From contig PLHQ01000206.1 in the NCBI GenBank assembly GCA_003138975.1, positions 1-37,610 on the forward strand: DNA of 37,610 nucleotides. The letters are read 5' to 3'. Below, in pieces: positions 10,448 through 33,098 of the stretch. The notes beneath the pieces were generated by a model. That model saw only the letters and a list, made by a program, of their open reading frames with translations, did no database searches and was not told the origin of the DNA. The position numbers and the translations under genes are program-made. The DNA is from Acidobacteriaceae bacterium. GTDB lineage: Bacteria > Acidobacteriota > Terriglobia > Terriglobales > Acidobacteriaceae. Each line of letters starts with the position of its first letter. Position 1 is the first letter of the stretch.

Positions 10448-10450
10448 CGG

Positions 10451-10738: not shown

Positions 10739-10752
10739 GAGGCGCGATGTGT

Positions 10753-10778
10753 GGCAACTGAAGTTCGGCAACTGAAGT
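10753..10778 (+). repeat. 14-base-period tandem duplication before the wax synthase gene
   Basis: GGCAACTGAAGT occurs at 10753-10764 and again at 10767-10778. It lies in the 52-base gap just ahead of the ribosome site GGAGAG of the wax synthase gene. A second exact tandem duplication of period 14 lies before the carboxylase gene (26679-26706). Confidence 0.7.
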
Positions 10779-10790
10779 AGGAGAGCTGGC

Positions 10791-12395: not shown

Positions 12396-12421
12396 GGAAC
12401 GTCAAGCGGAGAGTAGAGAAC

Positions 12422-14527: not shown

Positions 14528-14617
14528 AAGAAGAGCAGGCTGCCGAAAGAATGTGTGGCGGCTTCGTCCAGTAGGCTCGAATGAAATTGAAACTAAGGAC
14601 GATTCGCGGAGGTGAAT

Positions 14618-15409: not shown

Positions 15410-16395
15410 TGGCTCGCATCTTCGCTTACATCGTGCACAAAGGTGGCGTGGCTGCCGATTCTGCGCTTGAACTAGCGGCCGCTGCGCGAAAGATCGATGC
15501 TGTGGCTTCGCCGACAGCGATTCTGACCGGGTGGGGTGCGGACCTGGATGCCGCCTGCAATACCCTCGGTGCTTCCTACCCTGAGATTTGGAAGATCGCC
15601 AACGAAGCTCTTGCCTACCCCAATGCTGAACTAGTCCGGAAAGCCCTGCTCAAGGTGCTGCCGAGCGACAGCATTGTGTTGGTTGCCCATGAGCATTTCG
15701 GAATCGACCTGGCGCCGGGTCTCTCCATCAAGATGGATTCAGCTTTCGTTTCCGACGTGTTGGATATCGCCGGGGTTGAAGGTGCCGGCCTCAAAGTTGT
15801 CCGCCAGGAATTTGGGGGACAGGTGAGCGCTCACGTTCGTTGCGACATCTCATCGGGCGCAGTGGTCACGATACGTCCGGGCGCGTTCAAGGCGGTGGAG
15901 GGCGCTCCCGTCAGCGGCGTCGTCGTTGACAAATCCAACGACGTCGGCGGGCTGGTATCGGGCCGGCGCTATCTGGAGACGGTCGTCGCCGAGGCGGGTG
16001 ATGTCGATATCACCAAGTACAACGTTTTGGTTTCCATCGGCCGTGGCATCCAGGAAAAAGACAATGTGGCCATTGCGCAGGAACTGGCTGACGCCCTGGG
16101 TGCGGCGGTGAGCTGCTCGAGACCCGTGGTCGACGCCAAGTGGATGGATAAGTCACGTCAGGTGGGCTCATCCGGAAAAACCGTCAAGCCCAAGGTCTAT
16201 CTGGCATGCGGCATCAGTGGGTCTTTCCAGCATCTGGCTGGCATCAAAGGCAGTCCGTTCCTGATCGCCATTAACAAGAACCCGAAGGCTCCGATATTCC
16301 AGGTTGCAGATGTCGGAATTGTCGATGACATCCTGGAGTTCTTGCCGGAATTGACCAACAAAGTCCGTGAAATGCGCAGCGTCGCAGCAAAGTGA
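15409..16395 (+). CDS. etfA: electron transfer flavoprotein subunit alpha
   Basis: 328 residues, normal for the family. The C-terminal FAD-binding domain is clear: [55 protein letters not shown], with the GSSGKTV and GISG loops intact. The N-terminal half is the more variable domain that contacts the beta subunit. The start ATG shares its A with the etfB stop. With etfB it forms the soluble FAD carrier between the acyl-CoA dehydrogenase encoded ten bases downstream and the membrane oxidoreductase upstream. I see no features of the bifurcating subclass that I could defend from sequence alone. Confidence 0.93.
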
Positions 16396-16405
16396 GGAAC
16401 CGCCC

Positions 16406-18085
16406 ATGATCGCAAGCAAAACCCTGAAGTTAAGTTTGAAGTCGCTCAAGGACTTCGCCAAGAAACGTCTGCCGGATGAGGTGCTCCGGGAGCTTGATGA
16501 ACGCGATGAATGTCCGCTCGATATTGTCCGCCACATGTGTAGCCCGGACAAACTGGGCATTCAACTTCTGTTCATTCCCGAGGAGTTCGGTGGCATGGGC
16601 GGCGGTACCTTCGATGTGTACTGCGTCTGCGAAGAGATGGCGCGCATCGATTTGGGCGTCGCCACGGCCGTGCTGGCCACGTTTCTGGGCAGCGATCCGA
16701 TCACGGTCGGCGCCACTCCGGAGCAAAAGAAGATCTGGCTGACGCGTATCGCGGAAGAAGGAATCTTGTTCGCCTACGGCGCCACCGAGCCGGAAGCGGG
16801 CAGTGATCTGGGATCGCTTCGCACCACAGCGGACCCGGTTACCGAAAACGGCCGCGTCGTCGGCTACAAAATCAGCGGCAACAAGCAATGGATCAGCAAC
16901 GGTGGAATCGCTGATGCCTACTCGGTTTTGGCCAACACGCCCAGCGGTCCGAGTTGGTTCATCGTGGAAAAGGGCGCGAAGGGCTTCACCCACGACGAGC
17001 CGGAAGACAAGCACGGCATCCGCCTCAGCAACACGGCAGCGCTGGCGTTCGACAACGTCTATGTCGATGCCGACCGGCTCGTTGGTGGCGTGGAAGGCCA
17101 GGGGTTGAATCAAGCGCAGGCCGTGTTCGGTTATACGCGCCTGATGGTGGCAGCGTTTGGCCTGGGCGCAGGATGGTCCGCGCTCGACCGGGCCATTCCT
17201 TATTCCACCAAGCGTATTCAAGCCGGGGCGCCGCTCTCGGAAAAGCAGGGATACACGCACAAGCTGATCGTGCCCAACGTGGTGCGACTCGAAGCAGCCC
17301 GCTCCTACATCGAAGAAACCGCGGAGCGCATCGACGCCGGGGCCGAAGGAAGCCTGAACACCGAGGGCGCCATCGCCAAGTACATGGCAACCGAAGCCGG
17401 CAATACCGCCGCCGAGGCCAGCATCCAGGCTCTGGGTGGCTACGGTTACACGCATGAATATATGGTGGAGAAAATCAGCCGCGACGTTCGCATCACCACG
17501 ATCTATGAAGGCACGTCCGAGATCATGGAGATGACCATCAGCCGCGACCGTTGGCAGAATCATCTCAAAACACGCGGGCAGCACTATCACGAGCGGGCGC
17601 GAGAGTTCGAAGCGTTGCACGCCCGCCATGCGAACGTGGGCGCCGATATCGCGGCGCTGGCTTTGCACGCATTGGCTGAGGTTATGGAAAAAGCGCGAGT
17701 CGGACGCCTGACCCGCTATCAACATATTCTCCTGCGCCTGGGTGAGTTAATCGCTTATGCCGAGTGCGCGGGGAGTTTGTCCCGCCGCGCCGCGCTTTTG
17801 TCTGAAGGCAAGCTCCACGAAAAAGCGAACCGGCGCTTCGATGCGACGGCGCTGGCGGCGATCAGCCGAGTTTTTGCCCGCGACGCCGCGCTCAAGGTGG
17901 CCGAAGAAGGTTTGCGCTGGGTGGTCGGAGCCGGGGGCGTCAGCGATGCCGAGATGGCTGGCTTTGAAACGAGTTTAGGATTGCCCGCCATTCACCGCGC
18001 GCAGTCGGGCCTTATTTCGGACCTGGATTACATAGCAGACGTACTGTACGGCCGCGCGGCCAAGCGCACGGAACTGGCCGCGTAG
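16406..18085 (+). CDS. acyl-CoA dehydrogenase
   Basis: 559 residues from the ATG at 16406, ten bases after etfA; GAGG at 16394 serves as ribosome site. The N-terminal domain has [15 protein letters not shown], and the flavin/substrate region has [15 protein letters not shown] and [12 protein letters not shown]. The C-terminal helical domain has [19 protein letters not shown] and the catalytic-base motif IYEGTSEI with E368. About 150 further residues after the usual end add a helical domain, as in the larger acyl-CoA dehydrogenases. The chemistry is alpha,beta-dehydrogenation of acyl-CoA with electrons to ETF. Set between etfBA and the synthase gene, it could also run in reverse to reduce enoyl-CoA, supplying the enoyl reduction that the synthase lacks (inference). 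Substrate length cannot be read. Confidence 0.92.
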
Positions 18086-18118: not shown

Positions 18119-21100
18119 ATGGAAAACACTTCTTATCGCGCCATAGCAATTGTGGGAGTTGGAGCCGTTTTACCCGATGCTCCGAATGTACAGGCATTCT
18201 GGAAAAATGTGAAGGACGGCCGCTACAGCATCAGCGAGGTTGCGCCCGACCGCTGGGACCCGGGGCTTTACTACGATCCCGATCACAGCGCCCCGGACAA
18301 GACTTACTCAAAAATCGGCGGCTGGGTGCGTGAGCATGTGTGGGAGCCCATGAAGTGGCGCCTGGCTATCCCGCCGCGTGTGGTCGATGCGATGGATGAG
18401 TCGCAAAAATGGGCCATCGCTTGCACACGCGAAGCGTTAGAAGACTATGGCTATCCCAAGCGGCCGCTGGACAATGATCGCACGGCTGTCATCCTTGGCA
18501 ATGCTATGGCCGGCGAAAAACATTATTTCACCGCGCTGCGCCTGTACTTTCCGGAATACGCGCATGAACTGGCCGATTGTGCCAGCTTCGCCGCGCTACC
18601 AGAGAAGCTGCGCCACGACCTCACGCGGGAGCTGCACGACCGGATGGCCAGGCGCATTCCCGATGTAACCGAAGACACCATGCCCGGCGAATTGGCCAAC
18701 TGCATTGCCGGCCGCATCGCGAACGTTTTCAACTTTCACGGCCCCAATTACGTTGTGGACGCGGCGTGCGCATCGGCAATGGCGGCCATCAGCGCGGCGG
18801 CCGAGGGATTAGTGGCGAACGATTTTGACATCGCGGTCACCGGCGGCATTGACCGGAACATGGGTGCCTCGACCTATATCAAGTTCTGCAAGATCGGCGC
18901 GCTGTCGGCGACCGGCACTCGTCCCTACGCCGAAGGGGCCGACGGCTTCGTCATGGGCGAAGGCACCGCTATCTTTCTGCTCAAGCGTCTGGCCGATGCC
19001 GAGCGCGACGGGGACAAGATCTACGCCGTGCTGCGCGGCATAGCCGGATCGAGCGACGGCAAGGGAAAGGGCATCACCGCGCCCAACCCGATTGGCCAAA
19101 AATTCGCCATCGAGCGCGCCTGGCAGAATGCCGGATTATCGCCGGCTACTGTGACGTTGATCGAGGGCCATGGCACATCCACCGCCGTGGGCGACGTCGT
19201 CGAATTGCAAAGCATGATCGACGTGCTCAGCAGTTCTCATCTCCCCTCGCACTCCGTGGCGCTTGGTTCGGTCAAGTCGAACCTCGGGCACCTTAAAGGA
19301 GCGGCCGGCGCTGCCGGACTGCTGAAAGCCGCGCTGGCGCTTCGGGACAAAGTACTGCCGCCGAGCGTGCATTGCGAGCATCCCAATCCGAACATCGACT
19401 TTGCCCATTCTCCGCTTTACGTCAATACCGAACTGAAACCATGGACGATGCCAGAAGATGGTGTGCGCCGGGCCGGTCTGAGCGCTTTTGGTTTTGGCGG
19501 CACCAATTTCCACGCGGTGCTCGAAGAATACATTCCCGGCAGGCTGAACGGAAACGGCAAGCGCTCGGTGGTGGTCAGTGAGATACCGCCGAAAGTGAAA
19601 GAGCCAATTATGAATGTGGAAAGTGTTTCCCGCACTTCTTTTTCCGGTACTGCCCGCTCTTCTTCTTACAAAGCTCCGTTACGCGGAGCACTGGTAATCG
19701 GCGCCGCTTCCGAAGCTGCGCTCATCGAGCGTCTGCGCGCGGTGGAGAAAGACGCCAAAGCAGGCCTTGCACCAGCACCAACTGCCCCGGCTGAATCCGA
19801 CCTGCGCGCGCCCGAGCGCCTGGCCATCGACTACTCCAACGCCACCGAACTGGCTGACAAAACAGGCAATGCACTCAAAGCGCTCGCGGCTAATCAGCCG
19901 GCAGTGTGGAAAGTCCTGCGGGCACAAGGCATCTTCCGGGGTCACGGTCCCGCTCCCAAGGTCGCCTTCCTGTATACCGGTCAAGGCTCGCAGTACGCAA
20001 ACATGCTCCAACTGATCCGGGCAACGGAGCCGATTGTGGCTGAAACCTTTGCCGAAGCCGATCGCGTGATGACGCCCTTGCTAGGCAAGCCGCTCAGCGA
20101 ATTTATCTTCGTTGACCAAGCCGACGCCGTCGCCGTCGCCAAGGCCGAAGACGATCTGCGCCAAACCGAGATCACTCAGCCCGCGGTGCTGGCAATCGAC
20201 CTCGCGCTGACCCGGCTCCTGGCCGCATACGGCATTGAGCCCGACTTCACGATAGGACACAGCTTGGGCGAATACGGAGCGCTGGTCGCGGCCGGCGGCC
20301 TCCCCTTTGTCGACTCACTGGAAGCGGTCAGCGCTCGAGGCCGCGGAATGACCCAGGTGGCAATGGACGACAACGGCCGCATGGCCGCGGTGTTTGCTCC
20401 GATTGAAGAAATCGAGCGCATCCTGAAGACGATCAACGGCAACATCGTGATTGCCAACTTCAACAGCAACCATCAGGCGGTTGTCGGTGGCGCGAGCAAA
20501 GCGGTCGAGCAGGCCATGGAAGCCTTCCAAAAAGCTGGCTATGACGTGTCTGCATTGCCTGTCAGCCACGCCTTCCACACAACGATTGTGGCGGGAGCCA
20601 GCAAGCCGCTGCGGCAAGTTCTGGAGCGCCTGCATCTCCAATCGCCACGTTTGCCGATCGTCGCGAACACAAACGGCGAGTTTTATCCCACCGGACCTGA
20701 CGTCGTGCCGCAGATGCTCGACATTCTCACGCAGCAGGTCGCTTCTCCTGTGCAGTTTATTAAGGGCTTGCGCACGCTGTACGATGCCGGCGCTCGTATG
20801 TTTGTTGAAGTTGGACCGAAGAAGGCGTTGCAAGGATTTGCCGAGGATGTGCTCGGCGGCCACAACGATGTGGTTTCGTTGTTTACCAATCATCCGAAAG
20901 TCGGCGATCTCGCCGCGTTCAACCAGGCGCTGTGCGGTCTATATGCGGCGGGCCTCGGCCGCGGGACCGCGGAAGCCTTGCCCGAACCCGCGGTAACGAC
21001 CGTGACCGCTATTCCCTCGTCGGAAACGTCTAAACCGATTCCCGTGGCAGCGTCCCCAACCAACACCTCTGGCACGCAAACCGGGCCGTCGAACGGCGAT

Positions 21101-24100
21101 CACTACAACGAGCTCGGCCGTTTGTTCGCCGATGTTCTCGATCGCGGCTACGAGCTCTACCACGGCCAGAATGGGCGCTCCACCTCCGCCCCGGTGGTCA
21201 TCACGGGCGCGGCGTTAGGCCTGCCTGGAACCGAGCACATTTTCGACGATAGCAACATTGGCCGCATTCTGCGGGGCGATCAGTTTATCGATTTGATTCC
21301 CACAGGCTTCCGTCAGGCCATGCTCGACAAACACATCACGCGCCTGGTGAAGAGTGAGAACGGCGCACGGTTTGAGACCCTCACTGATGTCGCGGACGTC
21401 ATCAAGCTGGCGGGCCGCGGAGGCGCGTTTAATCTGAAAGATGAATTCGGAATTTCGTCCGAACGCGTAGCCGCCCTCGACCGTGTCACCCAACTGGCGA
21501 TCGCCGCGGGCATCGACGCATTGCGCGACGCCGGCATCCCGCTGGTCATGCGCTATAAAACCACGACCAAAGGCACGCAATTACCGGAGCGCTGGGGATT
21601 GCCCGACGCTTTGCGCGACGATACCGGTGTGATTCTTGCGTCCGCCTTCCCCGGGATGGACTCGTTCGCGGATGAGATGGCGCGCTATTACGCGGACCAC
21701 GAACGCCGCGAGCAGTTAACCGTGCTCGAAGGCCTGCTCGCCGGGGCGGTCGAAGGGAACGGTCATTCCAATCTGGTGCAGGAGATAAACCGGCGCATCG
21801 ACGAGTTGCGCGTCGCCATCGACAAAGAACCGTATGTCTTCAACCGGCGCTTCTTGCTCCGAGTCTTGTCCATGGGACATTCGCAGTTTGCTGAATTCAT
21901 CGGTGCCCGCGGCCCCAACACCCAAATCAACTCTGCTTGCGCGAGCACCACGCAGGCGGTGTCGCTGGCGCAGGACTGGATCCATGCCGGGCGCTGCAAC
22001 CGGGTGATCGTCGTCTCGGCCGACGACGTCACCTCCGATCATCTGATCGATTGGATGGGCGCTGGTTTCCTGGCCACTGGAGCGGCAGCCACCGACGAAG
22101 TGGTTGCAGACGCCGCCATTCCCTTCGACCGCCGGCGGCACGGCATGATTATCGGCATGGGCGCCGCAGCTCTGGTGGTGGAGAGCGCCGACGCCGCGCG
22201 TGAACGTGGAATACAGCCCATCTGCGAGGTGTTGAGCACCGTGACCGGCAACAGCGCTTTCCACGGCACTCGTCTCGATGTCCAGCACATCGGCCTAGTG
22301 ATGGAGACCCTTGTGACCAAAGCCGAAGCGGGCAGCGGCATTTCGCGTCACCAGATAGCGCCACAGACGGTTTTCGTTTCCCATGAAACCTATACCCCGG
22401 CGCGCGGCGGCAGTGCCTCCGCCGAGATCCACGCGCTGCGTCGCGTCTTCGGCGACGTCGCGGATCGCATCGTGATCGCCAACACCAAGGGCTTCACCGG
22501 TCACGCCATGGGCACAGGCATCGAAGATGTCGTCGCCGTCAAGGCGCTGGAAACCGGCTGCGTGCCCCCAGTTGCCAACTTTAAGGAAGTTGATCCGGAG
22601 CTGGGACCGTTGAACCTGTCGAAAGGCGGTAGCTATCCCGTCGAGTACGCCATACACCTGGGAGCGGGGTTCGGTTCGCAGATCAGCATGATGCTGTTGC
22701 ATTGGATCAAGACGAAAGACGGTATCCGTCCCAGCCCGAACGCTCTGGGCTATGCCTACCGCATCGCCGATGCCACCGCCTGGAGTACCTGGCTGAGTAG
22801 CATCGCGGGCCGTCCAGTCGCCGATCTGGAAGTCGTCCACCGCACGCTGCGCGTGCGAGATCAAGGGGTAGCAGCGCGGGTCGCCGAAGTTGCTAGGGAA
22901 TTGCGAACGGCGCCAGCAAAAACGACGGCTCCTACCCCCACAACGCAAGCACCACCACCGACGTCAGTCGTCACCACGAAACCGGCGCCTCCGCCGCCCG
23001 TCGCAGTCGCTGAACCGGCATCCAAAGTTCAAGTCGCCGCTGTGGCTCCCGCTCCTTCCGCGCCGCCACGACCAGCGGCAAAGGGCGATCTCAAGGGCGA
23101 TCCGGTGAAAGAGAGAGTGCTGGCTCTGGTAGCCGAGAAAACCGGTTATCCGGTGGACATGCTCGATCTGGATCTCGATCTCGAAGCGGATCTGGGCGTC
23201 GACACAGTTAAGCAGGCGGAGGTCTTTGCCTCCATTCGCGAGATCTACAGCATTCCGCGTGACGAGAACCGCAGGCTGCGCGATTATCCCACGTTGGCGC
23301 ACGTCATCCGTTTCGTGTATGAGAAGCGTCCCGACTTGGCTGCAACCCCGGCGGCAGCGAAGGAAGAAGTCAAACTCACAGCGCCTACAACCGCTGCGGT
23401 TGCTGAGAAACCGGCAGCCGCGCAAAACGTCACTGGCGATTCCGTCAAGGAACGCATTCTCGCGCTGGTGGTAGAGAAGACCGGTTATCCGAAAGACATG
23501 CTGGATTTGGATCTCGACCTCGAAGCGGACCTCGGCGTCGACACCGTCAAACAGGCGGAGATGTTCGCGGCCATCCGAGCGGAATATAACATTCCGCGCG
23601 ACGAGAACCTTAAGCTGCGCGACTATCCCACGTTGGCGCGCGTCATCCAGTTCGTGTTTGAGAAGCGTCCCGACTTGGCTGGGGTGTCTGCAGTTCCATC
23701 CCCAGCAACTATCAGCGCTCCATCTGAACCCACGCCGCCGCCAGTCGCAGCCCAAGCGGCCGCGGACGACTCCATCAAGGAGAAGGTGCTGGCCATTGTG
23801 GCCGAGAAGTCGGGCTATCCCAAAGACATGTTGGATCTGGATCTGGATCTCGAAGCAGACCTCGGCATCGACACCGTCAAACAAGCGGAGATGTTCTCGG
23901 CCGTGCGAGCGGCATACAACATTCCGCGCGATGAGAATCTCAAGCTGCGCGAGTTCCCGACGTTGGCCCACGTGATCAAGTTCGCTCGCGACCGGCAACC
24001 CGCATTGGCTAAAGCGTCTGCTCCAATCTCGTCCGCCATCCAAGAGAAACGAGAGCCGGCGCGGAAAAAACCGGCAGTGTCTGCATCTTCGGGTGCGAAG

Positions 24101-26665
24101 CCGGTTTCGCGTCCGATCCCCGCCAGTTTCGACGCCGCCAATCGTATTCCACGCCGCGTACCTGTTCCCAACTTGCGTCCGCCGCTTGCCGTTTGCAAGC
24201 CAACCGGTGTGACGCTCGGGTCCGGTCGCAGAGTGGTCATTATGCCGGACAAGTCTGGTGTAGGAGACGCGCTGGCGCGACGGCTACAGACGATGGGTGT
24301 AGAAGTTCTCCGCGTTGAGGACGCGTCCGGAGCGGACGCACTGGCCAACCGCCTCAGGAGCTGGCTGGCCGCGGGTGCGGTGCACGGAGTGTACTGGCTG
24401 CCCGCGCTGGACAACGAGGGAAACCTCAACGATATGGACCTCGCCGGCTGGCATGAAGCCCTGCGGGTACGCGTCAAATCGCTGTATGCGACCATGCGCA
24501 TTTTGTACGAGCAGGTTGCGACGCCGAGCACGTTCCTCGTGTCGGCAACGCGGCTGGGTGGACAGCATGGCTACGATGCGACCGGCGCGATAGCGCCGTT
24601 CGGTGGCGCGGTCGTGGGTTTCACCAAAACGTATAAACGAGAGCGGATGGACGCTCTGGTCAAGGCCGTCGACTTTGAAGAGGAACGAAAGCCGTCAGAG
24701 GTCGCCGACATCCTGATTGAGGAAACTCTGCGCGATCCTGGCGCAGTCGAAATTGGTTACAAGGGAGGTCCGCGCTGGACGGTTGGGCTACAGGAACAGC
24801 TCGCCGCCGATGGCCAGCCCGGTCTAACCCTGGACAGCAACACCGTCTTTGTGGTCACCGGCGCGGCCGGAAGTATCGTTTCGGCCATCACCGCCGATTT
24901 GGCGACGGCCTCCGGAGGCACGTTCTACCTGCTCGATCTGGTGCCCGAGCCTGATCCGGAGAATCCCGATCTGAGACGCTTCGCGACCGACAAGGACGGC
25001 CTCAAGCGCGATCTGTTCGCACGCATCCAGGCGCGCGGCGAGCGCGCTACGCCGGTCCTGGTTGAAAAAGAGCTGGCAGCCTTGGAGCGAGCGCAGGCAG
25101 CAAATAGCGCGATCGCTGCCGTGCGAGCGGCCGGCGGTACAGCGCATTACTTCAGCGTCAACCTCACCGATGCGGACGCTGTAACCAAAATCATCAAGCA
25201 AGTGCGGGAGCGCAGTGGGCACATCGATGTGCTGCTGCACGCCGCCGGCACAGAGCGCAGTCACTTCCTGCCGGACAAGGATGCGCGTGAATTCGATCTG
25301 ATCTTCGACGTCAAGAGCGACGGCTGGTTCAATCTTCTGCATGCCATCGGCGACATGCCCCTCGGGGCGACGGTGGCGTTCAGTTCGATTGCCGGGCGCT
25401 TCGGCAACGCCGGACAAACCGATTACAGCGCGGCCAACGACCTGTTGTGCAAGATCACGTCGAGCTTCCGCACCACCCGGCCGGCCACACGCGGCATCGT
25501 CATCGACTGGACGGCATGGGGCGGCATCGGCATGGCCACGCGCGGCTCCATCCCTAAGATGATGGAACTGGCTGGTATCGATATGCTGCCACCCGAGGCG
25601 GGGATTCCTTTGATTCGCCGCGAACTCACTGCAGGGGGCGTTGGGGAAATTGTTATCGGCCTTCGTCTCGGCGTTCTGCTGAACGAGTGGGATGCCACTG
25701 GGGGGCTGGATACATCGGCAGCGGGCACCCTGACCCGATCGCCGGAGCAAGGACCATTCATCGGCAAGATAGCAGGCATGGGGCTTCAGCGTGGCGTCAA
25801 AATCGAGACGACGCTGGATCCGGCGATTCAGCCGTTCTTGCACGATCACCAAATTGACGGCACACCGGTGCTACCCGGGGTCATGGGCATCGAGGCGTTT
25901 GCCGAAGCTGCGCTATGCCTGCTTCCCGGCTGGCACATCGAGGGGATTGAAGATGTCAACTTCCTGGCTCCGTTCAAGTTCTATCGAAAAGAACCGCGCA
26001 CGGTGACAGTCGAGGCAGTCGTCCATCCAGAGCACGACAACCTGCTGGCAGATTGCCGCTTGACCGGTGAACGGTTGCTCCCCAACCAAGCCGAGCCACA
26101 AATGACAACGCATTTCACGGCCCGGGTGCGGCTTACACCACAGATGCCCAAAGCGACGGCCGTGCCGGAGATGGGATCGCCGAACGGACACATCATCGAA
26201 GCTGCCGATATCTATCGCCTCTACTTCCACGGACCCGCATACCAGGTGGTGGAGCGGGCGTGGTGGGACGGACATCGGATTGTCGGGTTGATGGCGAAAG
26301 GCCTGCCGCCAAACCATCTGCCGTCCGAGCTGCCAACCCTGATGGCGCCGCGCCTGATTGAGCTTTGCTTCCAAACTGCGGGGATCTGGGAGATGGGCGT
26401 GCATGGGCGTATGGGCCTGCCGCAGCACATTGATCGAGTTTCATCATTATTATTGCCGGCCCCGGAATCGGCCGACACTCGCTTATACGCCGTGGTCACT
26501 TGCGACCCGGTTTGCACCAGCTTCGATGCGGAGGTAGTGGACGCGAAAGGAAACTGCTACTTGCATCTTAGCGGGTACCGCACGGTCGCGGTTCCCAATG
26601 CGGTGGATGCCGAGGGGTTGAAGGCACTACAGGCTGCGATGTCACTCGACGCCGTCGCCGCATGA
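18119..26665 (+). CDS. multidomain polyketide/fatty-acid (PUFA-like) synthase KS-AT-KS-ACPx3-KR-DH
   Basis: 2848 residues; GAGGAG precedes the ATG at 18119. KS1 (about 10-470) has DAACASAMA (C217), EGHGTSTA (H351) and NLGHLKG (H391). The acyltransferase (about 610-930) has GHSLGE (S715) and AFH (H820). A second, divergent KS (about 1020-1545) keeps C1274, H1422 in SHETYT and H1462 in TGHAMG. An Ala/Pro linker leads to three carrier domains (about 1660-1965), each with LG(V/I)DTVKQAE, so Thr (T1696, T1809, T1919) replaces the phosphopantetheine Ser. A KR (about 2030-2530) has TGAAGSI, S2422 and Y2436. A C-terminal DH (about 2545-2840) has HQIDGTPVLPG (H2577). No enoyl reductase or thioesterase is visible. 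The first half resembles PfaA of PUFA synthases and HglE-like synthases, but the extra KS and fused DH do not match PfaA. Product: an acyl chain of unknown length and saturation. Confidence 0.9.
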   Translation: MENTSYRAIAIVGVGAVLPDAPNVQAFWKNVKDGRYSISEVAPDRWDPGLYYDPDHSAPDKTYSKIGGWVREHVWEPMKWRLAIPPRVVDAMDESQKWAIACTREALEDYGYPKRPLDNDRTAVILGNAMAGEKHYFTALRLYFPEYAHELADCASFAALPEKLRHDLTRELHDRMARRIPDVTEDTMPGELANCIAGRIANVFNFHGPNYVVDAACASAMAAISAAAEGLVANDFDIAVTGGIDRNMGASTYIKFCKIGALSATGTRPYAEGADGFVMGEGTAIFLLKRLADAERDGDKIYAVLRGIAGSSDGKGKGITAPNPIGQKFAIERAWQNAGLSPATVTLIEGHGTSTAVGDVVELQSMIDVLSSSHLPSHSVALGSVKSNLGHLKGAAGAAGLLKAALALRDKVLPPSVHCEHPNPNIDFAHSPLYVNTELKPWTMPEDGVRRAGLSAFGFGGTNFHAVLEEYIPGRLNGNGKRSVVVSEIPPKVKEPIMNVESVSRTSFSGTARSSSYKAPLRGALVIGAASEAALIERLRAVEKDAKAGLAPAPTAPAESDLRAPERLAIDYSNATELADKTGNALKALAANQPAVWKVLRAQGIFRGHGPAPKVAFLYTGQGSQYANMLQLIRATEPIVAETFAEADRVMTPLLGKPLSEFIFVDQADAVAVAKAEDDLRQTEITQPAVLAIDLALTRLLAAYGIEPDFTIGHSLGEYGALVAAGGLPFVDSLEAVSARGRGMTQVAMDDNGRMAAVFAPIEEIERILKTINGNIVIANFNSNHQAVVGGASKAVEQAMEAFQKAGYDVSALPVSHAFHTTIVAGASKPLRQVLERLHLQSPRLPIVANTNGEFYPTGPDVVPQMLDILTQQVASPVQFIKGLRTLYDAGARMFVEVGPKKALQGFAEDVLGGHNDVVSLFTNHPKVGDLAAFNQALCGLYAAGLGRGTAEALPEPAVTTVTAIPSSETSKPIPVAASPTNTSGTQTGPSNGDHYNELGRLFADVLDRGYELYHGQNGRSTSAPVVITGAALGLPGTEHIFDDSNIGRILRGDQFIDLIPTGFRQAMLDKHITRLVKSENGARFETLTDVADVIKLAGRGGAFNLKDEFGISSERVAALDRVTQLAIAAGIDALRDAGIPLVMRYKTTTKGTQLPERWGLPDALRDDTGVILASAFPGMDSFADEMARYYADHERREQLTVLEGLLAGAVEGNGHSNLVQEINRRIDELRVAIDKEPYVFNRRFLLRVLSMGHSQFAEFIGARGPNTQINSACASTTQAVSLAQDWIHAGRCNRVIVVSADDVTSDHLIDWMGAGFLATGAAATDEVVADAAIPFDRRRHGMIIGMGAAALVVESADAARERGIQPICEVLSTVTGNSAFHGTRLDVQHIGLVMETLVTKAEAGSGISRHQIAPQTVFVSHETYTPARGGSASAEIHALRRVFGDVADRIVIANTKGFTGHAMGTGIEDVVAVKALETGCVPPVANFKEVDPELGPLNLSKGGSYPVEYAIHLGAGFGSQISMMLLHWIKTKDGIRPSPNALGYAYRIADATAWSTWLSSIAGRPVADLEVVHRTLRVRDQGVAARVAEVARELRTAPAKTTAPTPTTQAPPPTSVVTTKPAPPPPVAVAEPASKVQVAAVAPAPSAPPRPAAKGDLKGDPVKERVLALVAEKTGYPVDMLDLDLDLEADLGVDTVKQAEVFASIREIYSIPRDENRRLRDYPTLAHVIRFVYEKRPDLAATPAAAKEEVKLTAPTTAAVAEKPAAAQNVTGDSVKERILALVVEKTGYPKDMLDLDLDLEADLGVDTVKQAEMFAAIRAEYNIPRDENLKLRDYPTLARVIQFVFEKRPDLAGVSAVPSPATISAPSEPTPPPVAAQAAADDSIKEKVLAIVAEKSGYPKDMLDLDLDLEADLGIDTVKQAEMFSAVRAAYNIPRDENLKLREFPTLAHVIKFARDRQPALAKASAPISSAIQEKREPARKKPAVSASSGAKPVSRPIPASFDAANRIPRRVPVPNLRPPLAVCKPTGVTLGSGRRVVIMPDKSGVGDALARRLQTMGVEVLRVEDASGADALANRLRSWLAAGAVHGVYWLPALDNEGNLNDMDLAGWHEALRVRVKSLYATMRILYEQVATPSTFLVSATRLGGQHGYDATGAIAPFGGAVVGFTKTYKRERMDALVKAVDFEEERKPSEVADILIEETLRDPGAVEIGYKGGPRWTVGLQEQLAADGQPGLTLDSNTVFVVTGAAGSIVSAITADLATASGGTFYLLDLVPEPDPENPDLRRFATDKDGLKRDLFARIQARGERATPVLVEKELAALERAQAANSAIAAVRAAGGTAHYFSVNLTDADAVTKIIKQVRERSGHIDVLLHAAGTERSHFLPDKDAREFDLIFDVKSDGWFNLLHAIGDMPLGATVAFSSIAGRFGNAGQTDYSAANDLLCKITSSFRTTRPATRGIVIDWTAWGGIGMATRGSIPKMMELAGIDMLPPEAGIPLIRRELTAGGVGEIVIGLRLGVLLNEWDATGGLDTSAAGTLTRSPEQGPFIGKIAGMGLQRGVKIETTLDPAIQPFLHDHQIDGTPVLPGVMGIEAFAEAALCLLPGWHIEGIEDVNFLAPFKFYRKEPRTVTVEAVVHPEHDNLLADCRLTGERLLPNQAEPQMTTHFTARVRLTPQMPKATAVPEMGSPNGHIIEAADIYRLYFHGPAYQVVERAWWDGHRIVGLMAKGLPPNHLPSELPTLMAPRLIELCFQTAGIWEMGVHGRMGLPQHIDRVSSLLLPAPESADTRLYAVVTCDPVCTSFDAEVVDAKGNCYLHLSGYRTVAVPNAVDAEGLKALQAAMSLDAVAA
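23098..24000 (+). repeat. three tandem carrier-domain repeats within the synthase gene
   Basis: Three units of about 240 bases with periods of 339 and 330 bases encode near-identical carrier domains (each with LDLDLDLEADLG, then DTVKQAE, and PRDEN...LR(D/E)(Y/F)PTL). The nucleotide likeness is high around the acceptor region. The acceptor codons are ACA (23204), ACC (23543) and ACC (23873), all Thr. Spacers are Ala/Pro/Thr-rich. Confidence 0.9.
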
Positions 26666-26724: not shown

Positions 26725-29700
26725 ATGGAACACGAATTTCAACGCGTGGCCATCGTGAATCGCGGCGAAGCCGCCATGCGTTTCATTCACGCATCCGGCG
26801 ATTTCAATCAAGAACACGGCACATCGTTGCGCACGATCGCGCTTTTCACCGAGCCTGACCGCCGTAGCATGTTCGTGCGCGAGGCCGACGAAGCGGTATG
26901 TCTCGGTCCCGCTCAGGTCCTCGATCCAAACACCCAGCGACTTAAGAGCAGTTACGTCGACTATGGCCGGCTCGAACGCGCGCTCGCGACGGCGCACGCG
27001 GATGCGGTCTGGGTGGGATGGGGTTTTGTGGCCGAGCACGCCGCATTCGCCGACCTTTGCCGCGAGCTGGGCCTCGTGTTCATCGGTCCGGATGGCGACG
27101 TGATGCGGCGCGTGGGCGACAAGATCGCCTCCAAACGAATTGCCGAGCAGGCGCAGATACCGGTAGCACCCTGGAGCAATGGGCCGGTGGAAACCCTCGC
27201 CGACGCCCAGGGCCATGCTGAGCGCCTGGGCTATCCGTTTCTCATTAAGGCCACCGCCGGAGGTGGCGGTCACGGGATTCGTCTGGTGCGTTCGGCTGAC
27301 CAACTCCCGCAAGCCTTTGCCAGCGCCCGGGCCGAGGCATTCAAGGCCTTCGGGGATCCAACCGTTTTCATGGAGCAACAGGTGCAACGCGCGCGTCACG
27401 TCGAGGTCCAAATTATTGCCGACCACTACGGGACGACATGGGCCGCCGGCGTGCGCGACTGCACCATCCAGCGACGCCACCAGAAAATCCTCGAAGAAGC
27501 ACCCTCGCCGGCGCTTTCTCCGGAGCAAGATCGGGCGCTGTGCGAGGCGGCGGTGCGCTTGAGTCAAGCAACGGGCTATCACAACGCCGGCACTGTCGAA
27601 TTCCTGTACGAACCGGAAATCAACCGCTTCTCGTTCATGGAGATGAATACTCGGTTGCAGGTCGAACATCCGGTGACCGAATGCACGACCGGGCTCGATC
27701 TCGTGAAACTTCAGATCCACGTCGCGCGTGGTGGCCGCCTGGAAGGCGAACCGCCGCGCACCACCGGCCATGCCATTGAGGTGCGGCTGAATGCGGAAGA
27801 TCCGGACAACGGCTTTGCTCCGGCTCCGGGCGTTATTGAGCGGTTCAGAATTCTGCCAGGGCCGGGGGTGCGCATCGATACCGGAGTAGCGGAAGGCGAT
27901 GCCATCCCCTCGGAGTTCGACTCGATGATCGCCAAGATCATCGCCCACGGCAAGAACCGGAAAGAAGCGCTTTCCCGTCTGCAGCGGGCGCTGCGCGAGA
28001 GCGTTGTCGTCATCAAGGGCGGTGCCAGCAACAAAGCGTTTCTGCTGGAATTGCTGAACCGCCCCGAGGTGCAGCGTGGAGAAGTACACGTTGGATGGCT
28101 AGACCACTTGGCGGCGACCGGTGAGCACCTCTCTAGGCGTTACGCCGACGTAGCTCTGGTTCAAGCCGCGATCGAGACCTACGATGCCCAGTTAGCCGTG
28201 GAGCAGACGCAGTTTTATGCGTCGTCGGTGCGCGGGCGGCCGCACGTCCGCCGTGAGGCAGGCCTGACTGCGGAACTACGCTATCGAGGCCATTGCTACT
28301 CGCCGAAAACCTATCGCCTCGGCCCTCAGCGATACCGTGTGGAGGTGAATGGGGCTCGCATCGATGCCCAGATCGACCGTTCGGGTCAGTTCGAATGTTG
28401 GCTCACCGTCTTCGGACGGCGTTTTCGTGTCGTCTCCGTAGTCCAGGGGATCAGTTACCGGATCGAGGTGGACGGTGTGCTGCACCGGATTGATCGAGAT
28501 GACGGGGGGGTGGTGCACGCGCCGGCGCCGGCGGTAGTGGTTTCCATTCTCGTCAAACCGGGCGACACCGTTGCGGTTGGCGACCGCCTGGCTGTGCTCG
28601 AGGCCATGAAAATGGAGACGCAGGTCGTGGCTTCATTTTCCGGAAAAGTTCGGCAAGTGATGGCCATACCCAACGTTCAGGTGGACACTGGAGCCCCGCT
28701 CCTGCAAATCGATCCCGTCGCCGGTGGCGACACGGTTACGGCCGCGGAGCAAGTGGTCTTTGGCACATCCCTTGCGTCGGATGGAACCGCAGAAGCCATG
28801 CAAGCCGGCAGCTATCAGAGCCTGGATGAACTGCGCCAGCTCATGTTGGGCTTTGACGTCGATCCCAAGCACACCACGCGTCTGCTCGCCGAATGGGGCG
28901 AGAATTGCCCCGTGGACAGCGAGGAAGTAAGACAGCGCGAAGATGAGATCCTCAACATTTTTGTGGACATACGTTCGCTGTTCCAACGCGAGCCGGAGGT
29001 GAACCATCGGGCCAGCGGTGAAGAGCCCACCGCCGAGGCCTATCTGTTTTCTTACCTGCGCATGCTGGAGACGCGCGGTGAAGGACTCCCGCCAGCCTTT
29101 GTCAGCGCGCTCCAACGTGCGCTGGCTCACTACGGTGTGCAGACGCTGGAACGCTCCCCTGAACTGGAAGAGAGCTTGCTCTGGATCTACAAGTCGCATC
29201 AACGCGCGGAGCAGCAAGTCGCCCCGGTTGTGGGCGTCCTCGAGCGGCGTCTGCGGCGCGTCCAGACGCTGTCGCCGCACGCTGAGGAGTCCTTTCGGAC
29301 GCTCCTCGACCGGATGGCCTCCATGACCAATGGGCTCTTTCCTGCGATCACCGACCTGGCTCGGGAAGTGCGCTATCGGTACTTCGACCAACCGCTGTTT
29401 GAGCGGGCACGTCAGCAGGTCTACGAGCAAATGGAGGAACACCTCGCCTATCTGGCTGCCAATCCCGATGCCGCGGACCGCTTCGAGAGAATCCGCGCGT
29501 TGGTCGAATGTCCGCAGCCGCTGTTCAATCTAATCTCCGGCCGGCTCGCAACCGCTGACGAAGCCATGCGCAAATTGATGTTGGAGGCGCTGACCTGGCG
29601 GTATTACCGGATTCGAAAGCTCACGAACTTTCGCTCCGTGGCTGTGGACGGACAGTGCTGCGCATCGGCGGAGTACGATCATGAGGGAAAGCGTATCCAT

Positions 29701-32325
29701 CTCTTCACCACGCACGCCGAGTACTCCCGGCTCGCGGAGGCGGCGCGGACGCTGTTTCCAATGATCGCGGAAGTCCCGGCAGACCACGACATCGTCATCG
29801 ATTTTTACGTTTTCCATTCCGCCAGGTTGGGCGACCCGGAGGCTACGCAGCAGGAAGTGCGCGCCGTGCTCAGCCAAGCTGGCTTCCCGCGCTCCATCCG
29901 GCGCATTGTAGCGACAGCCTCCGGCACCGGTCACGGCCCGGGTATGGCCGGCATGCATTTCACCTATCGCCCCAGCGGGAATGGGTATGAAGAGGAGAAG
30001 CTCTACCGCGGAATCCACCCCATGATGGGAAAACGGTTGCATCTCTGGCGGCTTAGCAATTTCAAGATCGACCGCCTGCCGTCCGTCGAAGATGTATACC
30101 TGATCCACGCCGTTGCCCACGATAACCCGAAGGATGAGCGGTTGTTCGCGTGCGCGGAAGTGCGCGACGTAACTCCGGTGCGAGATAAGACGGGTCGCAT
30201 CGTGCAACTGCCGCATCTGGAGCGCATGTTAGCGGAAGCGCTGGCCGGCATCCGGCTATTCCAGTCGCGGCGGCCGATCCATCAACGCCTCCATTGGAAT
30301 CGCATACTCCTCAACGTGTGGCCGCCGTTCAATCTTGGGCGGGATGAATTGCGTGATCTTGTGCGCAGACTCGCGCCTGCAACCGAGGGCCTGGGGTTGG
30401 AACAAGTGGTGGTGCGCGTCCGCATTCCCCATCCGGCGACCGGCGAGCTGCGCGACATGGTGGTGCGCATCTCAAGCCCGGGCGGCAGCGGTATGCTTAC
30501 CACCTTCCGGCTCGCCGACAAACTGCAACCAATCAGACCGCTGACCGAATACGACCAGAAAGTAGTTCGGATGCGCCAGCGCGGGTTCATCTACCCTTAC
30601 GAAATCGTCAAAATGCTCACACCTGCTCCCGAACACACGCGGGCGGAATTTCCAGCCGGCGATTTTGTCGAGCACGACCTTGACTCGGAAGGCCGTTTGG
30701 TCGCTGTCGATCGTCCCTATGGTCAAAACAGAGCCAACATCATCGTTGGCATCATCCGCAACTTTACCACCCGGTATCCCGAGGGCATGACACGCGTTCT
30801 CATGCTGGGAGATCCGAGCAAGGACCTGGGCGCTATAGCCGAACCAGAATGCCGGCTCATCCTCGCATCTTTGGATCTGGCCCAAGCGAAGGGTGTTCCC
30901 CTGGAATGGTTCCCCATCTCGGCCGGCGCCAAGATCTCGATGGACAGCGGAGTGGAAAACATGGATTGGATTGCCCGCGTCCTGCGGGGCTTGGTGGAGT
31001 TCACGCAAGCCGGCGGGGAAGTGAATGTAGTAGTGAACGGAATTAACGTCGGCGCGCAGCCGTACTGGAACGCCGAGGCCACCATGCTCATGCACACTCG
31101 GGGCATTCTGATCATGACGCCGAAAGCAGCGATGGTGCTGACCGGCAAGCGCGCGTTGGAATTCTCCGGCAGCATCTCGGCCGAGGACAATCAAGGAATC
31201 GGCGGTTACGATCGCATCATGGGTATCAACGGCCAGGCGCAGTACTGGGCACGCGATATCGATGAAGCCTGCCACATTCTGTTGCGCCACTATGATCACA
31301 CTTACGTGGCTCCGGGCGAGCGTTTCCCGCGGCGGGCCGCGACAGCCGATCCCTTTAATCGCGATGTGCAAGTCTATTCTCTCGGCAGGAACACCAATGG
31401 CGAAGAGGGATTCGAACTGATCGGCGAGATTTTGTCGGACGAGACTAATCCTGGGCGCAAGAAATCCTTTGATATTCGCAAAGTGATGATGGCCGCCATC
31501 GACCAGGACCACGCGCCACTGGAGCGCTGGGCTGGCATGCGCGCGGCGGAGACCGCGGTCGTGTGGGATGCCGATCTCGGTGGCTATCCAGTTTGTCTGA
31601 TCGGCATCGAATCCCGGCCCCTGCCCCGGTTAGGATTTGTTCCCGCCGACGGGCCGGAGCAATGGACTTCCGGCACGCTCTTCCCGCAATCCTCCAAGAA
31701 AATCGCGCGCGCGATCAACGCGGCGAGCAACAATCGACCGGTGGTGGTCCTAGCCAACCTGTCGGGCTTTGATGGTTCCCCGGAGTCGATGCGCAGGCTG
31801 CAACTTGAGTATGGTGCCGAGATCGGCAGAGCCGTAATCAACTTCAAAGGCCCCATCGTCTTTTGCGTAATCTCGCGCTATCACGGAGGCGCCTACGTGG
31901 TTTTCTCGCGGGCGCTGAATGAAAGCGTCGAAGTGGCAGCCTTGGAGGGAACGTATGCCTCGGTGATCGGCGGTGCTCCGGCGGCAGCCGTGGTTTTCGC
32001 CGGTGAGGTTGAAGCGAGGGCCCGCAAAGATGCCCGCCTGCAGCGGCTGAGCCAGGCGATGGCCCAGGCCGAGGGCGCGGAGGAAGGCCGGTTGCGCGCC
32101 CAGTGGGACGAACTCTTCAAACTCGTACACTCCGAGAAGCTGGGTGAGTTGGCCGCCGAGTTTGACCGTGTGCACACTGTGCAGCGGGCTCTCGACGTGG
32201 GTGCTCTCAATTACATTATTCCGCCCGCCAACCTGCGGCCGTATCTCATCGATGCGGTCGAACGCGGTATCGGAAGAGAGGAGAAATCCGCAAAGTCGGG
32301 AACCAGGATGAGGGAAGCGGCCTAG
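26725..32325 (+). CDS. single-chain multidomain acetyl-CoA carboxylase (eukaryote-type BC-BCCP-central-CT)
   Basis: 1866 residues. Residues about 1-480 are biotin carboxylase, with the ATP-grasp loop KATAGGGGHGIRLV and EMNTRLQVEHPVTE. A biotin carrier domain follows with the biotinylation motif EAMKMET (K629). Residues about 700-1240 resemble the non-catalytic central region of eukaryotic acetyl-CoA carboxylase (for example LYRGIHPMMGKRLHLWRLSN and PSVEDVYLIHAVAHDNPKDE). Residues about 1270-1840 are the fused carboxyltransferase (GIIRNFTTRYPEGMTRVLML, GYDRIMGINGQAQYW, VFCVISRYHGGAYVVFSRAL). Ordinary bacteria use separate AccA/B/C/D subunits, and bacterial single-chain acyl-CoA carboxylases are usually nearer 1100 residues. 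The product, malonyl-CoA, is the extender for the synthase just upstream. The ATG at 26725 follows a GGGGGA at 26717. Carboxylation of a longer acyl-CoA is an alternative. Confidence 0.9.
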   Translation: MEHEFQRVAIVNRGEAAMRFIHASGDFNQEHGTSLRTIALFTEPDRRSMFVREADEAVCLGPAQVLDPNTQRLKSSYVDYGRLERALATAHADAVWVGWGFVAEHAAFADLCRELGLVFIGPDGDVMRRVGDKIASKRIAEQAQIPVAPWSNGPVETLADAQGHAERLGYPFLIKATAGGGGHGIRLVRSADQLPQAFASARAEAFKAFGDPTVFMEQQVQRARHVEVQIIADHYGTTWAAGVRDCTIQRRHQKILEEAPSPALSPEQDRALCEAAVRLSQATGYHNAGTVEFLYEPEINRFSFMEMNTRLQVEHPVTECTTGLDLVKLQIHVARGGRLEGEPPRTTGHAIEVRLNAEDPDNGFAPAPGVIERFRILPGPGVRIDTGVAEGDAIPSEFDSMIAKIIAHGKNRKEALSRLQRALRESVVVIKGGASNKAFLLELLNRPEVQRGEVHVGWLDHLAATGEHLSRRYADVALVQAAIETYDAQLAVEQTQFYASSVRGRPHVRREAGLTAELRYRGHCYSPKTYRLGPQRYRVEVNGARIDAQIDRSGQFECWLTVFGRRFRVVSVVQGISYRIEVDGVLHRIDRDDGGVVHAPAPAVVVSILVKPGDTVAVGDRLAVLEAMKMETQVVASFSGKVRQVMAIPNVQVDTGAPLLQIDPVAGGDTVTAAEQVVFGTSLASDGTAEAMQAGSYQSLDELRQLMLGFDVDPKHTTRLLAEWGENCPVDSEEVRQREDEILNIFVDIRSLFQREPEVNHRASGEEPTAEAYLFSYLRMLETRGEGLPPAFVSALQRALAHYGVQTLERSPELEESLLWIYKSHQRAEQQVAPVVGVLERRLRRVQTLSPHAEESFRTLLDRMASMTNGLFPAITDLAREVRYRYFDQPLFERARQQVYEQMEEHLAYLAANPDAADRFERIRALVECPQPLFNLISGRLATADEAMRKLMLEALTWRYYRIRKLTNFRSVAVDGQCCASAEYDHEGKRIHLFTTHAEYSRLAEAARTLFPMIAEVPADHDIVIDFYVFHSARLGDPEATQQEVRAVLSQAGFPRSIRRIVATASGTGHGPGMAGMHFTYRPSGNGYEEEKLYRGIHPMMGKRLHLWRLSNFKIDRLPSVEDVYLIHAVAHDNPKDERLFACAEVRDVTPVRDKTGRIVQLPHLERMLAEALAGIRLFQSRRPIHQRLHWNRILLNVWPPFNLGRDELRDLVRRLAPATEGLGLEQVVVRVRIPHPATGELRDMVVRISSPGGSGMLTTFRLADKLQPIRPLTEYDQKVVRMRQRGFIYPYEIVKMLTPAPEHTRAEFPAGDFVEHDLDSEGRLVAVDRPYGQNRANIIVGIIRNFTTRYPEGMTRVLMLGDPSKDLGAIAEPECRLILASLDLAQAKGVPLEWFPISAGAKISMDSGVENMDWIARVLRGLVEFTQAGGEVNVVVNGINVGAQPYWNAEATMLMHTRGILIMTPKAAMVLTGKRALEFSGSISAEDNQGIGGYDRIMGINGQAQYWARDIDEACHILLRHYDHTYVAPGERFPRRAATADPFNRDVQVYSLGRNTNGEEGFELIGEILSDETNPGRKKSFDIRKVMMAAIDQDHAPLERWAGMRAAETAVVWDADLGGYPVCLIGIESRPLPRLGFVPADGPEQWTSGTLFPQSSKKIARAINAASNNRPVVVLANLSGFDGSPESMRRLQLEYGAEIGRAVINFKGPIVFCVISRYHGGAYVVFSRALNESVEVAALEGTYASVIGGAPAAAVVFAGEVEARARKDARLQRLSQAMAQAEGAEEGRLRAQWDELFKLVHSEKLGELAAEFDRVHTVQRALDVGALNYIIPPANLRPYLIDAVERGIGREEKSAKSGTRMREAA

Positions 32326-32345
32326 TCTCCTCCAGGGTGAATTGG

Positions 32346-33098
32346 ATGAACGTCTATTGGTTGGAACAATCCGAAGCAGATGTACCAGCGGAGAATGATT
32401 GGCTGAGCGCAAACGAAGCGGTCTGCCTGAACAGCATGCGCTTTGCGAAGCGTCGCAACGACTGGCGGCTGGGGCGCTGGACGGCGAAATGCGCCCTGTC
32501 CCTTACCCTGGATGTGCCTGCTCATCTTCAGGCCCTTAAGAAAATAGAAATACGCCCGGCGCCGTCCGGCGCGCCCGAGGTCTTTTTCGACAACCAACCG
32601 GCAGCGGTCACTATTTCACTCAGCCACCGCTCCGGTATCGCGGCTTGTGCCGTGGCGATATCCGGCGTGGAGATTGGTTGTGATCTGGAAATGGTCGAGC
32701 CGCGTAGCGATGCTTTTGTCGCCGACTATTTCACAATCGAAGAACAAGCGCTGGTTGCGCGCGCGTCTGTGGCGGACCGGGATTGGATCCTGGCACTGCT
32801 TTGGAGCGGGAAAGAGAGCGCCCTCAAAGCGCTGCGTGCAGGGCTTCGACTCGACACCCGGTCTGTGATCGTCATCCCTTGCGCCGCGTTATTCGACCTT
32901 AATGGCTGGAACCAACTCCGGGTTCGTTACACCGGTGGTCGTTGTACCGAAGGGCAGGTCTTCCACGGCTTGTGGCAACATGCAGACAATATCGTGCGAA
33001 CTGTGGTCGCCGCTCCGCCGCCGGATCCGCCGATTCCCTTAAAGATCCGGGCCAACTACTGCGACAGTGCTTCCCGGTTGAAACCTGTTCCGTGCTGA
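32346..33098 (+). CDS. 4'-phosphopantetheinyl transferase (Sfp type)
   Basis: 250 residues from the ATG at 32346; a GTG at 32337 is less likely. Family motifs are present in order: RFAKRRNDWRLGRWTAK near residue 32, SLSHRSGIAACAVA near 94, the Mg-binding GVEIGCDLE near 109, and WSGKESALKALRAG near 155. The enzyme would transfer the phosphopantetheine arm of CoA to carrier domains. It lies 20 bases after the carboxylase gene and in the operon of the three-carrier synthase, so that synthase is its obvious client. Since the client domains show Thr at the acceptor position, this enzyme either tolerates Thr or serves another carrier. I cannot judge which from sequence. The C-terminal 60 residues are poorly conserved-looking and proline-rich. 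Confidence 0.88.
   Translation: MNVYWLEQSEADVPAENDWLSANEAVCLNSMRFAKRRNDWRLGRWTAKCALSLTLDVPAHLQALKKIEIRPAPSGAPEVFFDNQPAAVTISLSHRSGIAACAVAISGVEIGCDLEMVEPRSDAFVADYFTIEEQALVARASVADRDWILALLWSGKESALKALRAGLRLDTRSVIVIPCAALFDLNGWNQLRVRYTGGRCTEGQVFHGLWQHADNIVRTVVAAPPPDPPIPLKIRANYCDSASRLKPVPC

What the first reader, a model, noticed from the sequence alone, without database searches (positions are those of the whole stretch)
23098..24000. All three carrier domains have Thr in place of the phosphopantetheine Ser
The acceptor motif reads LG(V/I)DTVKQAE in each repeat (T1696, T1809, T1919), where PUFA-synthase carriers have LGIDSIKRVE. Three identical changes in otherwise well-kept domains are not decay. 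Either Thr is phosphopantetheinylated here, with the operon's own Sfp-type transferase adapted to it, or the domains hold substrates in another way.
Basis: partly seen in the sequence, partly recalled or inferred. Interest (0 to 1): 0.8.

Follow-up and report, generated by a model that had tools for sequence, protein, structure and literature searches.

The report
Lipid synthase carriers anchored on threonine
In a lipid-making mega-enzyme of soil acidobacteria, the spot where carrier domains normally have a serine to hold their chemical arm is instead a threonine in every close relative examined, and the enzyme comes with its own arm-attaching partner, which suggests a natural exception to a rule taken as universal.

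Summary
The 2848-aa synthase (window 18119-26665) has three carrier domains with Thr (T1696, T1809, T1919) where the phosphopantetheine Ser belongs. This is neither decay nor chance. In this synthase and its relatives I read 141 Thr carriers (50 loci) and 70 Ser carriers (30 loci); no locus mixes them. Within the Thr group the codon changed silently about 32 times by parsimony but never became Ser. The six other carriers found in the genome have Ser. Catalytic residues of the other synthase domains are kept. A linked Sfp-type transferase with intact catalytic residues was found in the same 12 of 299 genomes of the class as the Thr synthase. A second phylum (Nonomuraea) has a one-carrier synthase with Thr and the same gene order. 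Best reading: Thr is the phosphopantetheine attachment residue, loaded by the linked transferase. This is inferred; no modification was measured. The architecture fits the published 'Type R' secondary lipid synthase (Shulse & Allen 2011), product unknown; the word threonine is absent from its main text. My literature searches found no natural threonine attachment site; in ordinary ACPs Ser-to-Thr mutants are reported to lose function.

The parts
18119..26665 (+). Type I iterative synthase P0001, 2848 aa: KS-AT-KS2-ACPx3-KR-DH
23111..23314 (+). Carrier domain 1; acceptor-position Thr1696, codon ACA 23204-23206
   Evidence: model
23450..23653 (+). Carrier domain 2; acceptor-position Thr1809, codon ACC 23543-23545
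23780..23983 (+). Carrier domain 3; acceptor-position Thr1919, codon ACC 23873-23875
18137..19378 (+). Ketosynthase 1 (Cys217, His351, His391)
19967..20848 (+). Acyltransferase (Ser715, His817)
21938..21940 (+). Codon of Cys1274 of the second ketosynthase-like domain (His1422 and His1462 also present)
25079..25522 (+). Ketoreductase (Ser2423, Tyr2436)
25790..26608 (+). Polyketide-type dehydratase region (His2577)
26725..32325 (+). Single-chain acetyl-CoA carboxylase-like protein, 1866 aa (malonyl-CoA supply, inferred)
   Evidence: relative in 19 of 28 Thr loci examined
32337..33098 (+). Linked Sfp-type 4'-phosphopantetheinyl transferase P0003, 253 aa
   Evidence: PF01648 55.9 bits against 25; invariant residues; fold match to Sfp 4mrt Z 21.4
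16367..18085 (+). Acyl-CoA dehydrogenase-like protein just upstream of the synthase
   Evidence: relative in 21 of 28 Thr loci examined

Best explanation
The three domains are true carrier domains in which Thr, not Ser, accepts the 4'-phosphopantetheine arm. The transferase encoded two genes downstream activates the Thr hydroxyl and attaches the arm from coenzyme A. The AT then loads malonyl units, and the KS, KR and DH domains extend and process a lipid chain on the thiol as in other type I iterative lipid synthases. Shown: Thr sits at the acceptor position, it is fixed across the clade sampled, the other active sites are kept, and a transferase with intact catalytic residues is linked and co-occurs. 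Inferred: the modification itself, which enzyme does it, and selection against Ser, perhaps to keep these carriers apart from AcpS and other transferases.
For:: 141 Thr and 70 Ser carriers, 0 mixed loci of 80; one Ser/Thr change on a weakly resolved tree of 157 distinct carriers; among 113 distinct Thr carriers about 32 silent codon changes and 14 V/I changes at position -2, no Thr-to-Ser, although ACN to TCN is one base; the own genome's six other PF00550 carriers are Ser. KS, AT, KR and DH residues kept in nearly all aligned cells; 12 of 299 genomes have a Thr synthase, and the same 12 have a transferase over 300 bits; next best 75 bits (7 of the 12 contributed rows to the profile, 5 did not); three genomes whose held synthase locus lacks the transferase (G298, G345, G596) have one of the same family elsewhere; the single-contig genome G227 has two PF01648 genes, one AcpS-sized and the linked one; catalytic D, E, W, K, E, K columns 29 of 29 in Thr-associated transferases; a Nonomuraea synthase with one carrier also has Thr, followed by carboxylase and transferase; no Ser carrier was found on the window's contig. 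Ser-to-Thr in ordinary ACPs is reported to lose function, so a Thr carrier kept in nature should need a transferase that accepts it.
Against: No mass or activity data. Reports that Ser-to-Thr breaks E. coli ACP (binding lost) and spinach ACP (as cited in PMC9310384) could equally mean that Thr is not loaded at all. Linkage makes the co-occurrence non-independent. Residues around Thr are also invariant, so its invariance is not unique in the motif. Three Thr genomes have transferases outside the main clade. Thr arose once on the tree, so there is no repeated co-variation with the transferase.
Confidence: 0.78

Rival explanations
1. The Thr is a tolerated substitution: Sfp-type transferases of this kind load Thr well enough, the change happened once by chance in the founder, and nothing is specially adapted. 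(This shares the modification with the best explanation; it denies the adaptation.)
For: Single origin on the tree. Thr goes with more than one transferase branch. None of the columns printed is both invariant in the 29 Thr-associated transferases and absent from the 11 others.
Against: If Ser and Thr were equivalent, one-base reversions should appear among 141 carriers with many silent codon changes; none did. Two genomes hold both a Thr and a Ser synthase and the carriers stay distinct (G658, G659). Ser-to-Thr is reported as damaging in E. coli and spinach ACP.
Confidence: 0.22
2. The Thr domains are not phosphopantetheinylated; they are docking or structural domains, and the chain rides on CoA or on a separate Ser carrier.
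For: Ser-to-Thr mutants of ordinary ACPs lose function. Ser carriers exist elsewhere in the genome.
Against: A transferase with intact catalytic residues lies beside the Thr synthase, or elsewhere in the genome in three cases, wherever enough sequence was held to look. No Ser carrier was found on the contig. Thr carriers come in one to six copies per synthase, each with Thr. A one-carrier synthase also has only Thr (L033).
Confidence: 0.12
3. Decay or sequencing artefact of a dead synthase.
For: None found.
Against: Three domains in the window, two synthase copies in the genome, 50 loci from two phyla, active-site residues kept.
Confidence: 0.01

Closest known systems
Type R secondary lipid synthase (Shulse & Allen 2011, PMC3098273; passages and section 8 read)
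   Same: Acidobacterial pfaA homologue KS-MAT-CLF-ACP(3-6)-KR with a downstream transferase; in Koribacter a carboxylase gene lies between, as here. The transferase has the hShxH-type motif reported there for types M-T (ISLSH in P0003).
   Different: The word threonine has 0 occurrences in the main text held. A dehydratase region is found here, and the second KS keeps its Cys. Identity to the paper's own loci was not computed.
PfaA of omega-3 PUFA synthases (TIGR02813)
   Same: Large KS-AT-tandem ACP-KR type protein; best NCBIfam match of P0001.
   Different: Score 981.9 is below the curated cut-off 1010.1. Ser-type relatives read here mostly end DSIKRVE (variants DSIKRI/L/T/A; one DSVKLGE protein), against DTVKQAE here; no characterised PfaA was fetched. 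A second KS precedes the carriers.
Sfp-type 4'-phosphopantetheinyl transferases (PF01648; Sfp 4mrt, human AASDHPPT 2cg5)
   Same: Fold (Z 21.4 and 19.3) and catalytic residue pattern (roles recalled from Sfp).
   Different: The G-[KR]-P residue is Ala in 26 of 29 Thr-associated transferases and Lys/Arg in 11 of 11 others; the partner carriers have Thr.
Ser-to-Thr mutants of ordinary ACPs (E. coli S36T, PMC13343975, passages; spinach ACP-I Ser38, as cited in PMC9310384, passages)
   Same: Same residue at the same position.
   Different: Laboratory mutants reported to lose binding or function; here Thr is the natural, fixed state.

Membership tests
Phosphopantetheine carrier domain (PF00550) | Profile match and carrier fold | tested here: met
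   62.2 bits against cut-off 20.8; model matches solved ACPs at Z 11.5-13.2
Phosphopantetheine carrier domain (PF00550) | Acceptor Ser at start of helix II | tested here: not met
   Thr in 3 of 3 window carriers and 141 of 141 carriers of the group
Phosphopantetheine carrier domain (PF00550) | Carries 4'-phosphopantetheine | not testable with these tools
   needs mass spectrometry
Type R secondary lipid synthase | KS, AT, second KS/CLF, 3-6 ACPs, KR in one protein | tested here: met
   the second KS keeps Cys1274, so it is a CLF only in position
Type R secondary lipid synthase | Transferase gene downstream, with a carboxylase gene between in Koribacter | tested here: met
   the paper's description
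Type R secondary lipid synthase | Groups with the named Type R KS sequences | not tested
   the paper's loci were not fetched
PUFA synthase PfaA (TIGR02813) | Score over curated cut-off | tested here: not met
   981.9 against 1010.1 bits
Sfp-type transferase | PF01648 match and D, E, WxxKE, K residues | tested here: met
Sfp-type transferase | Two-lobe Sfp fold | tested here: met
   216 residues aligned to 4mrt, Z 21.4, rmsd 3.0
Sfp-type transferase | Transfers phosphopantetheine to a carrier | not testable with these tools
   needs an assay

The most novel reading that the evidence does not exclude
Threonine is a natural, obligatory phosphopantetheine acceptor in a whole clade of bacterial type I lipid synthases, served by a dedicated transferase lineage that forms an orthogonal loading system separate from AcpS and the Ser-specific transferases in the same cell.
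Probability: 0.5. Interest if true: 0.85.

Novelty: new variant of a known kind. Interest (0 to 1): 0.72.

Why it matters
Carrier domains are defined, searched for and engineered around a Ser treated as invariant. A natural Thr clade would widen the definition, warn annotators against calling such domains dead, and offer a possibly orthogonal carrier/transferase pair for protein labelling and pathway engineering. It would also make testable why nature uses Ser almost everywhere: transferase chemistry, arm mobility, or removal of the arm. It gives a handle on a soil lipid synthase whose product is unknown.

Tried and rejected
A hidden nearby Ser acceptor was rejected by sequence, profile and predicted structure. 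Decay was rejected. A transferase residue that explains Thr acceptance: 29 Thr-associated against 11 other transferases. Candidate marks: Ala for Lys/Arg in G-[KR]-P (26 of 29 against 0 of 11), Cys before the first catalytic Asp (24 of 29 against 0 of 11), Ser after the catalytic Glu (24 of 29 against 0 of 11). By recalled Sfp structure the first is on the CoA side; all follow one clade, so none is claimed as causal.

Literature: strings of the motif gave no relevant paper. Phrase searches on Thr and carriers gave E. coli S36T (PMC13343975, passages read) and, through PMC9310384 (passages read), the spinach mutant. Passages of PMC7949117, PMC11744666, PMC8007912 and PMC12391972 were also read; none of these passages reports Thr as attachment residue, and those of PMC11744666 and PMC12391972 concern a Thr next to the acceptor Ser. 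The other listed papers were seen as listings only; subscription papers are not covered. Searches for a Type R product returned no paper that I saw to name one; beyond the 2011 paper only listings were seen.

Viral contigs gave no relative. Chloroflexi and Elusimicrobia, named in the 2011 paper, were not sampled. One search printed nothing because of duplicate names and was repeated. Rows dropped: 23 of the 30 loci L034-L063, each covered by a longer locus or the window, carriers with under 55 filled columns, and identical rows (157 left). One Ser row (L032, LGLGSLERVE) is a doubtful carrier. Coverage: of 33 matching genomes carriers were read in 22, the other 11 being matches of E 1.6e-5 or weaker; of 81, read in 36, the other 45 at E 3.3e-6 or weaker; four extra contig pieces (G376:C65, G542:C22, G409:C38, G332:C56) were not read; of 617 plasmid records five were fetched. 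The genome searches scored only the best few candidates per genome.

Full report
What is there. It holds a run of + strand genes, among them an acyl-CoA dehydrogenase-like protein, a 2848-aa type I synthase, a single-chain acetyl-CoA carboxylase-like protein of 1866 aa and a 253-aa Sfp-type transferase. Domain order of the synthase is KS-AT-KS2-ACPx3-KR-DH. The three carriers read DLEADLG(V/I)DTVKQAE with Thr at 1696, 1809 and 1919.

Is Thr at the acceptor position? Yes. PigH, the one solved sequence relative at E <= 0.001, aligns its LGVDS Ser with this Thr. In the own genome PF00550 finds six other carriers, all with Ser at this place, AcpP-like LGADS among them. The predicted structure puts T1696 at the start of helix II and matches solved ACPs (Z 11.5-13.2). 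No Ser or Cys column is invariant in 35 aligned carriers; one further Thr column is, in both types.

How general is it? Relatives came from named MAGs, 299 genomes of the class, 396 of the phylum (overlapping), 19 of one order and five plasmid-collection records. In the first set 128 carriers have Thr (44 loci) and 53 have Ser (16 loci), none mixed. A second set, fetched to cover weaker matches, gave 13 Thr (6 loci) and 17 Ser (14 loci), again none mixed. Complete Thr motifs read DT(V/I)KQA(E/Q); most Ser motifs read DSIKRVE or close variants, and one 564-aa reading frame has DSVKLGE. Two genomes, G658 and G659, carry both kinds. Loci are contig pieces, not independent species; some are fragments of one genome or near-copies. 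Unread weak matches are told under Tried and rejected.

Is it under selection? On a tree of 157 distinct carriers built without the acceptor column, Ser/Thr needs one change; the tree has 67 columns and many open forks. Among 113 distinct Thr carriers all four ACN codons occur with about 32 changes by parsimony, and position -2 flips between Val and Ile 14 times, while Thr never becomes Ser. Thr to Ser is one base (ACN to TCN), and 53 of 53 Ser codons read are TCN. Neighbouring D, G, D, K, Q and A are equally invariant. I read this as constraint on the whole acceptor motif, Thr included.

Is the synthase active? In 35 Thr synthase reading frames over 1500 aa, KS1 Cys is kept in 31 (3 gaps, 1 Arg), KS1 His in 32 and 31 (rest gaps), AT Ser in 31 (4 gaps), AT His in 28 (3 gaps, 3 Gly, 1 Ser), KS2 Cys in 32 (2 gaps, 1 Arg), KS2 His in 32 (2 gaps, 1 Gly) and 32 (3 gaps), KR Ser in 27 (7 gaps, 1 Pro), KR Tyr in 27 (7 gaps, 1 Gly) and DH His in 26 (8 gaps, 1 Arg). 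Many loci are cut; I did not check the odd cells one by one. Activity itself is inferred.

The transferase. P0003 matches PF01648 at 55.9 bits against 25 and its model folds like Sfp in complex with CoA and a carrier (4mrt, Z 21.4, 216 residues, rmsd 3.0). A relative lies in the same locus for the window and 24 further Thr loci. Of the 13 Thr loci without one, ten hold 0-2 bases beyond the synthase reading frame; the other three (L014, L068, L082) are from G298, G345 and G596, which have a same-family transferase elsewhere at 305, 257 and 253 bits. Six short Thr loci hold too little sequence to tell, and those were not examined for a transferase. In the class sample the 12 genomes with a Thr synthase (one search read) are the 12 with a transferase over 300 bits; the best other genome has 75 bits. 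Seven of the 12 contributed rows to the search profile. Linkage explains much of the co-occurrence. G227, one contig, has two PF01648 genes, one AcpS-sized and one linked.

Transferase tree: 26 of 29 Thr-associated transferases form one clade (support 100/98), Nonomuraea included. Those of G505, G514 and G366, whose carriers read DT(I/V)KQAQ, fall outside on long branches. So either Thr came first and the transferase diverged or was replaced, or more than one lineage can load Thr.

Second phylum and gene order. Nonomuraea gerenzanensis (Actinomycetota) has a synthase in which one carrier was found, with Thr, followed by carboxylase and transferase. Of 28 Thr loci compared, 21 hold a relative of the dehydrogenase and 19 of the carboxylase.

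Comparison with the known. The architecture agrees with the Type R secondary lipid synthase of Shulse & Allen 2011 (PMC3098273; passages and section 8 read): acidobacterial members, transferase downstream, carboxylase between in Koribacter, product unknown. The main text held has no 'threonine'. E. coli ACP S36T lost binding to its partner, which the authors ascribe presumably to the arm (PMC13343975, passages). Spinach ACP-I with Ser38 changed to Thr or Cys is cited as losing function (PMC9310384, passages; the 1989 original was not read). I recall, from no call, that protein-modification lists give phosphopantetheine on Ser only.

Verdict. The finding is real and stronger than stated: Thr is the fixed acceptor-position residue of a synthase clade seen in two phyla. 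Most likely the arm is on Thr and is placed by the linked transferase (0.78). A dedicated, orthogonal Thr system is the bolder version (0.5). The missing proof is a mass measurement.

Noticed in passing
window 21938-21940; residues 1274, 1422, 1462 of P0001: The second ketosynthase, called chain-length factor for Type R in the 2011 paper, keeps Cys and both His (32 of 35 Thr reading frames each; the rest gaps plus two odd cells), with HET where KS1 has HGT; it may be catalytic.
   Followed up: partly
L013 (own genome contig C146): The genome carries a second copy of the cluster: dehydrogenase, synthase with three Thr carriers, carboxylase and transferase.
   Followed up: partly
window 26725-32325: A bacterial single-chain acetyl-CoA carboxylase with an ACC_central domain, which I recall as typical of eukaryotic ACC.
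   Followed up: no
P0003 residues 78-80 and relatives: The G-[KR]-P residue of transferases is Ala in 26 of 29 Thr-associated enzymes and Lys/Arg in 11 of 11 others; recalled as a CoA contact in Sfp.
   Followed up: partly
L076, L087, L144, L077: Thr synthases with DT(I/V)KQAQ carriers and transferases outside the main clade; they may be an old branch or a transferase replacement.
   Followed up: partly
L086 7014-8705: A 564-aa reading frame with two Ser carriers reading DSVKLGE, between the two motif types, next to a transferase.
   Followed up: no
window 7781-16395: Upstream genes: AdhE-like aldehyde/alcohol dehydrogenase, wax ester synthase/DGAT and Fe-S protein and two that look like electron transfer flavoprotein subunits; suggests reduced lipids or wax esters as end products.
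   Followed up: no
L033: An 11.85 Mb replicon of Nonomuraea gerenzanensis is filed as a plasmid in the plasmid collection; by size it is probably the chromosome.
   Followed up: no
L136, L137 (G658) and L138-L140 (G659): Two genomes hold both Thr and Ser carriers of this type; natural systems to test transferase specificity.
   Followed up: partly
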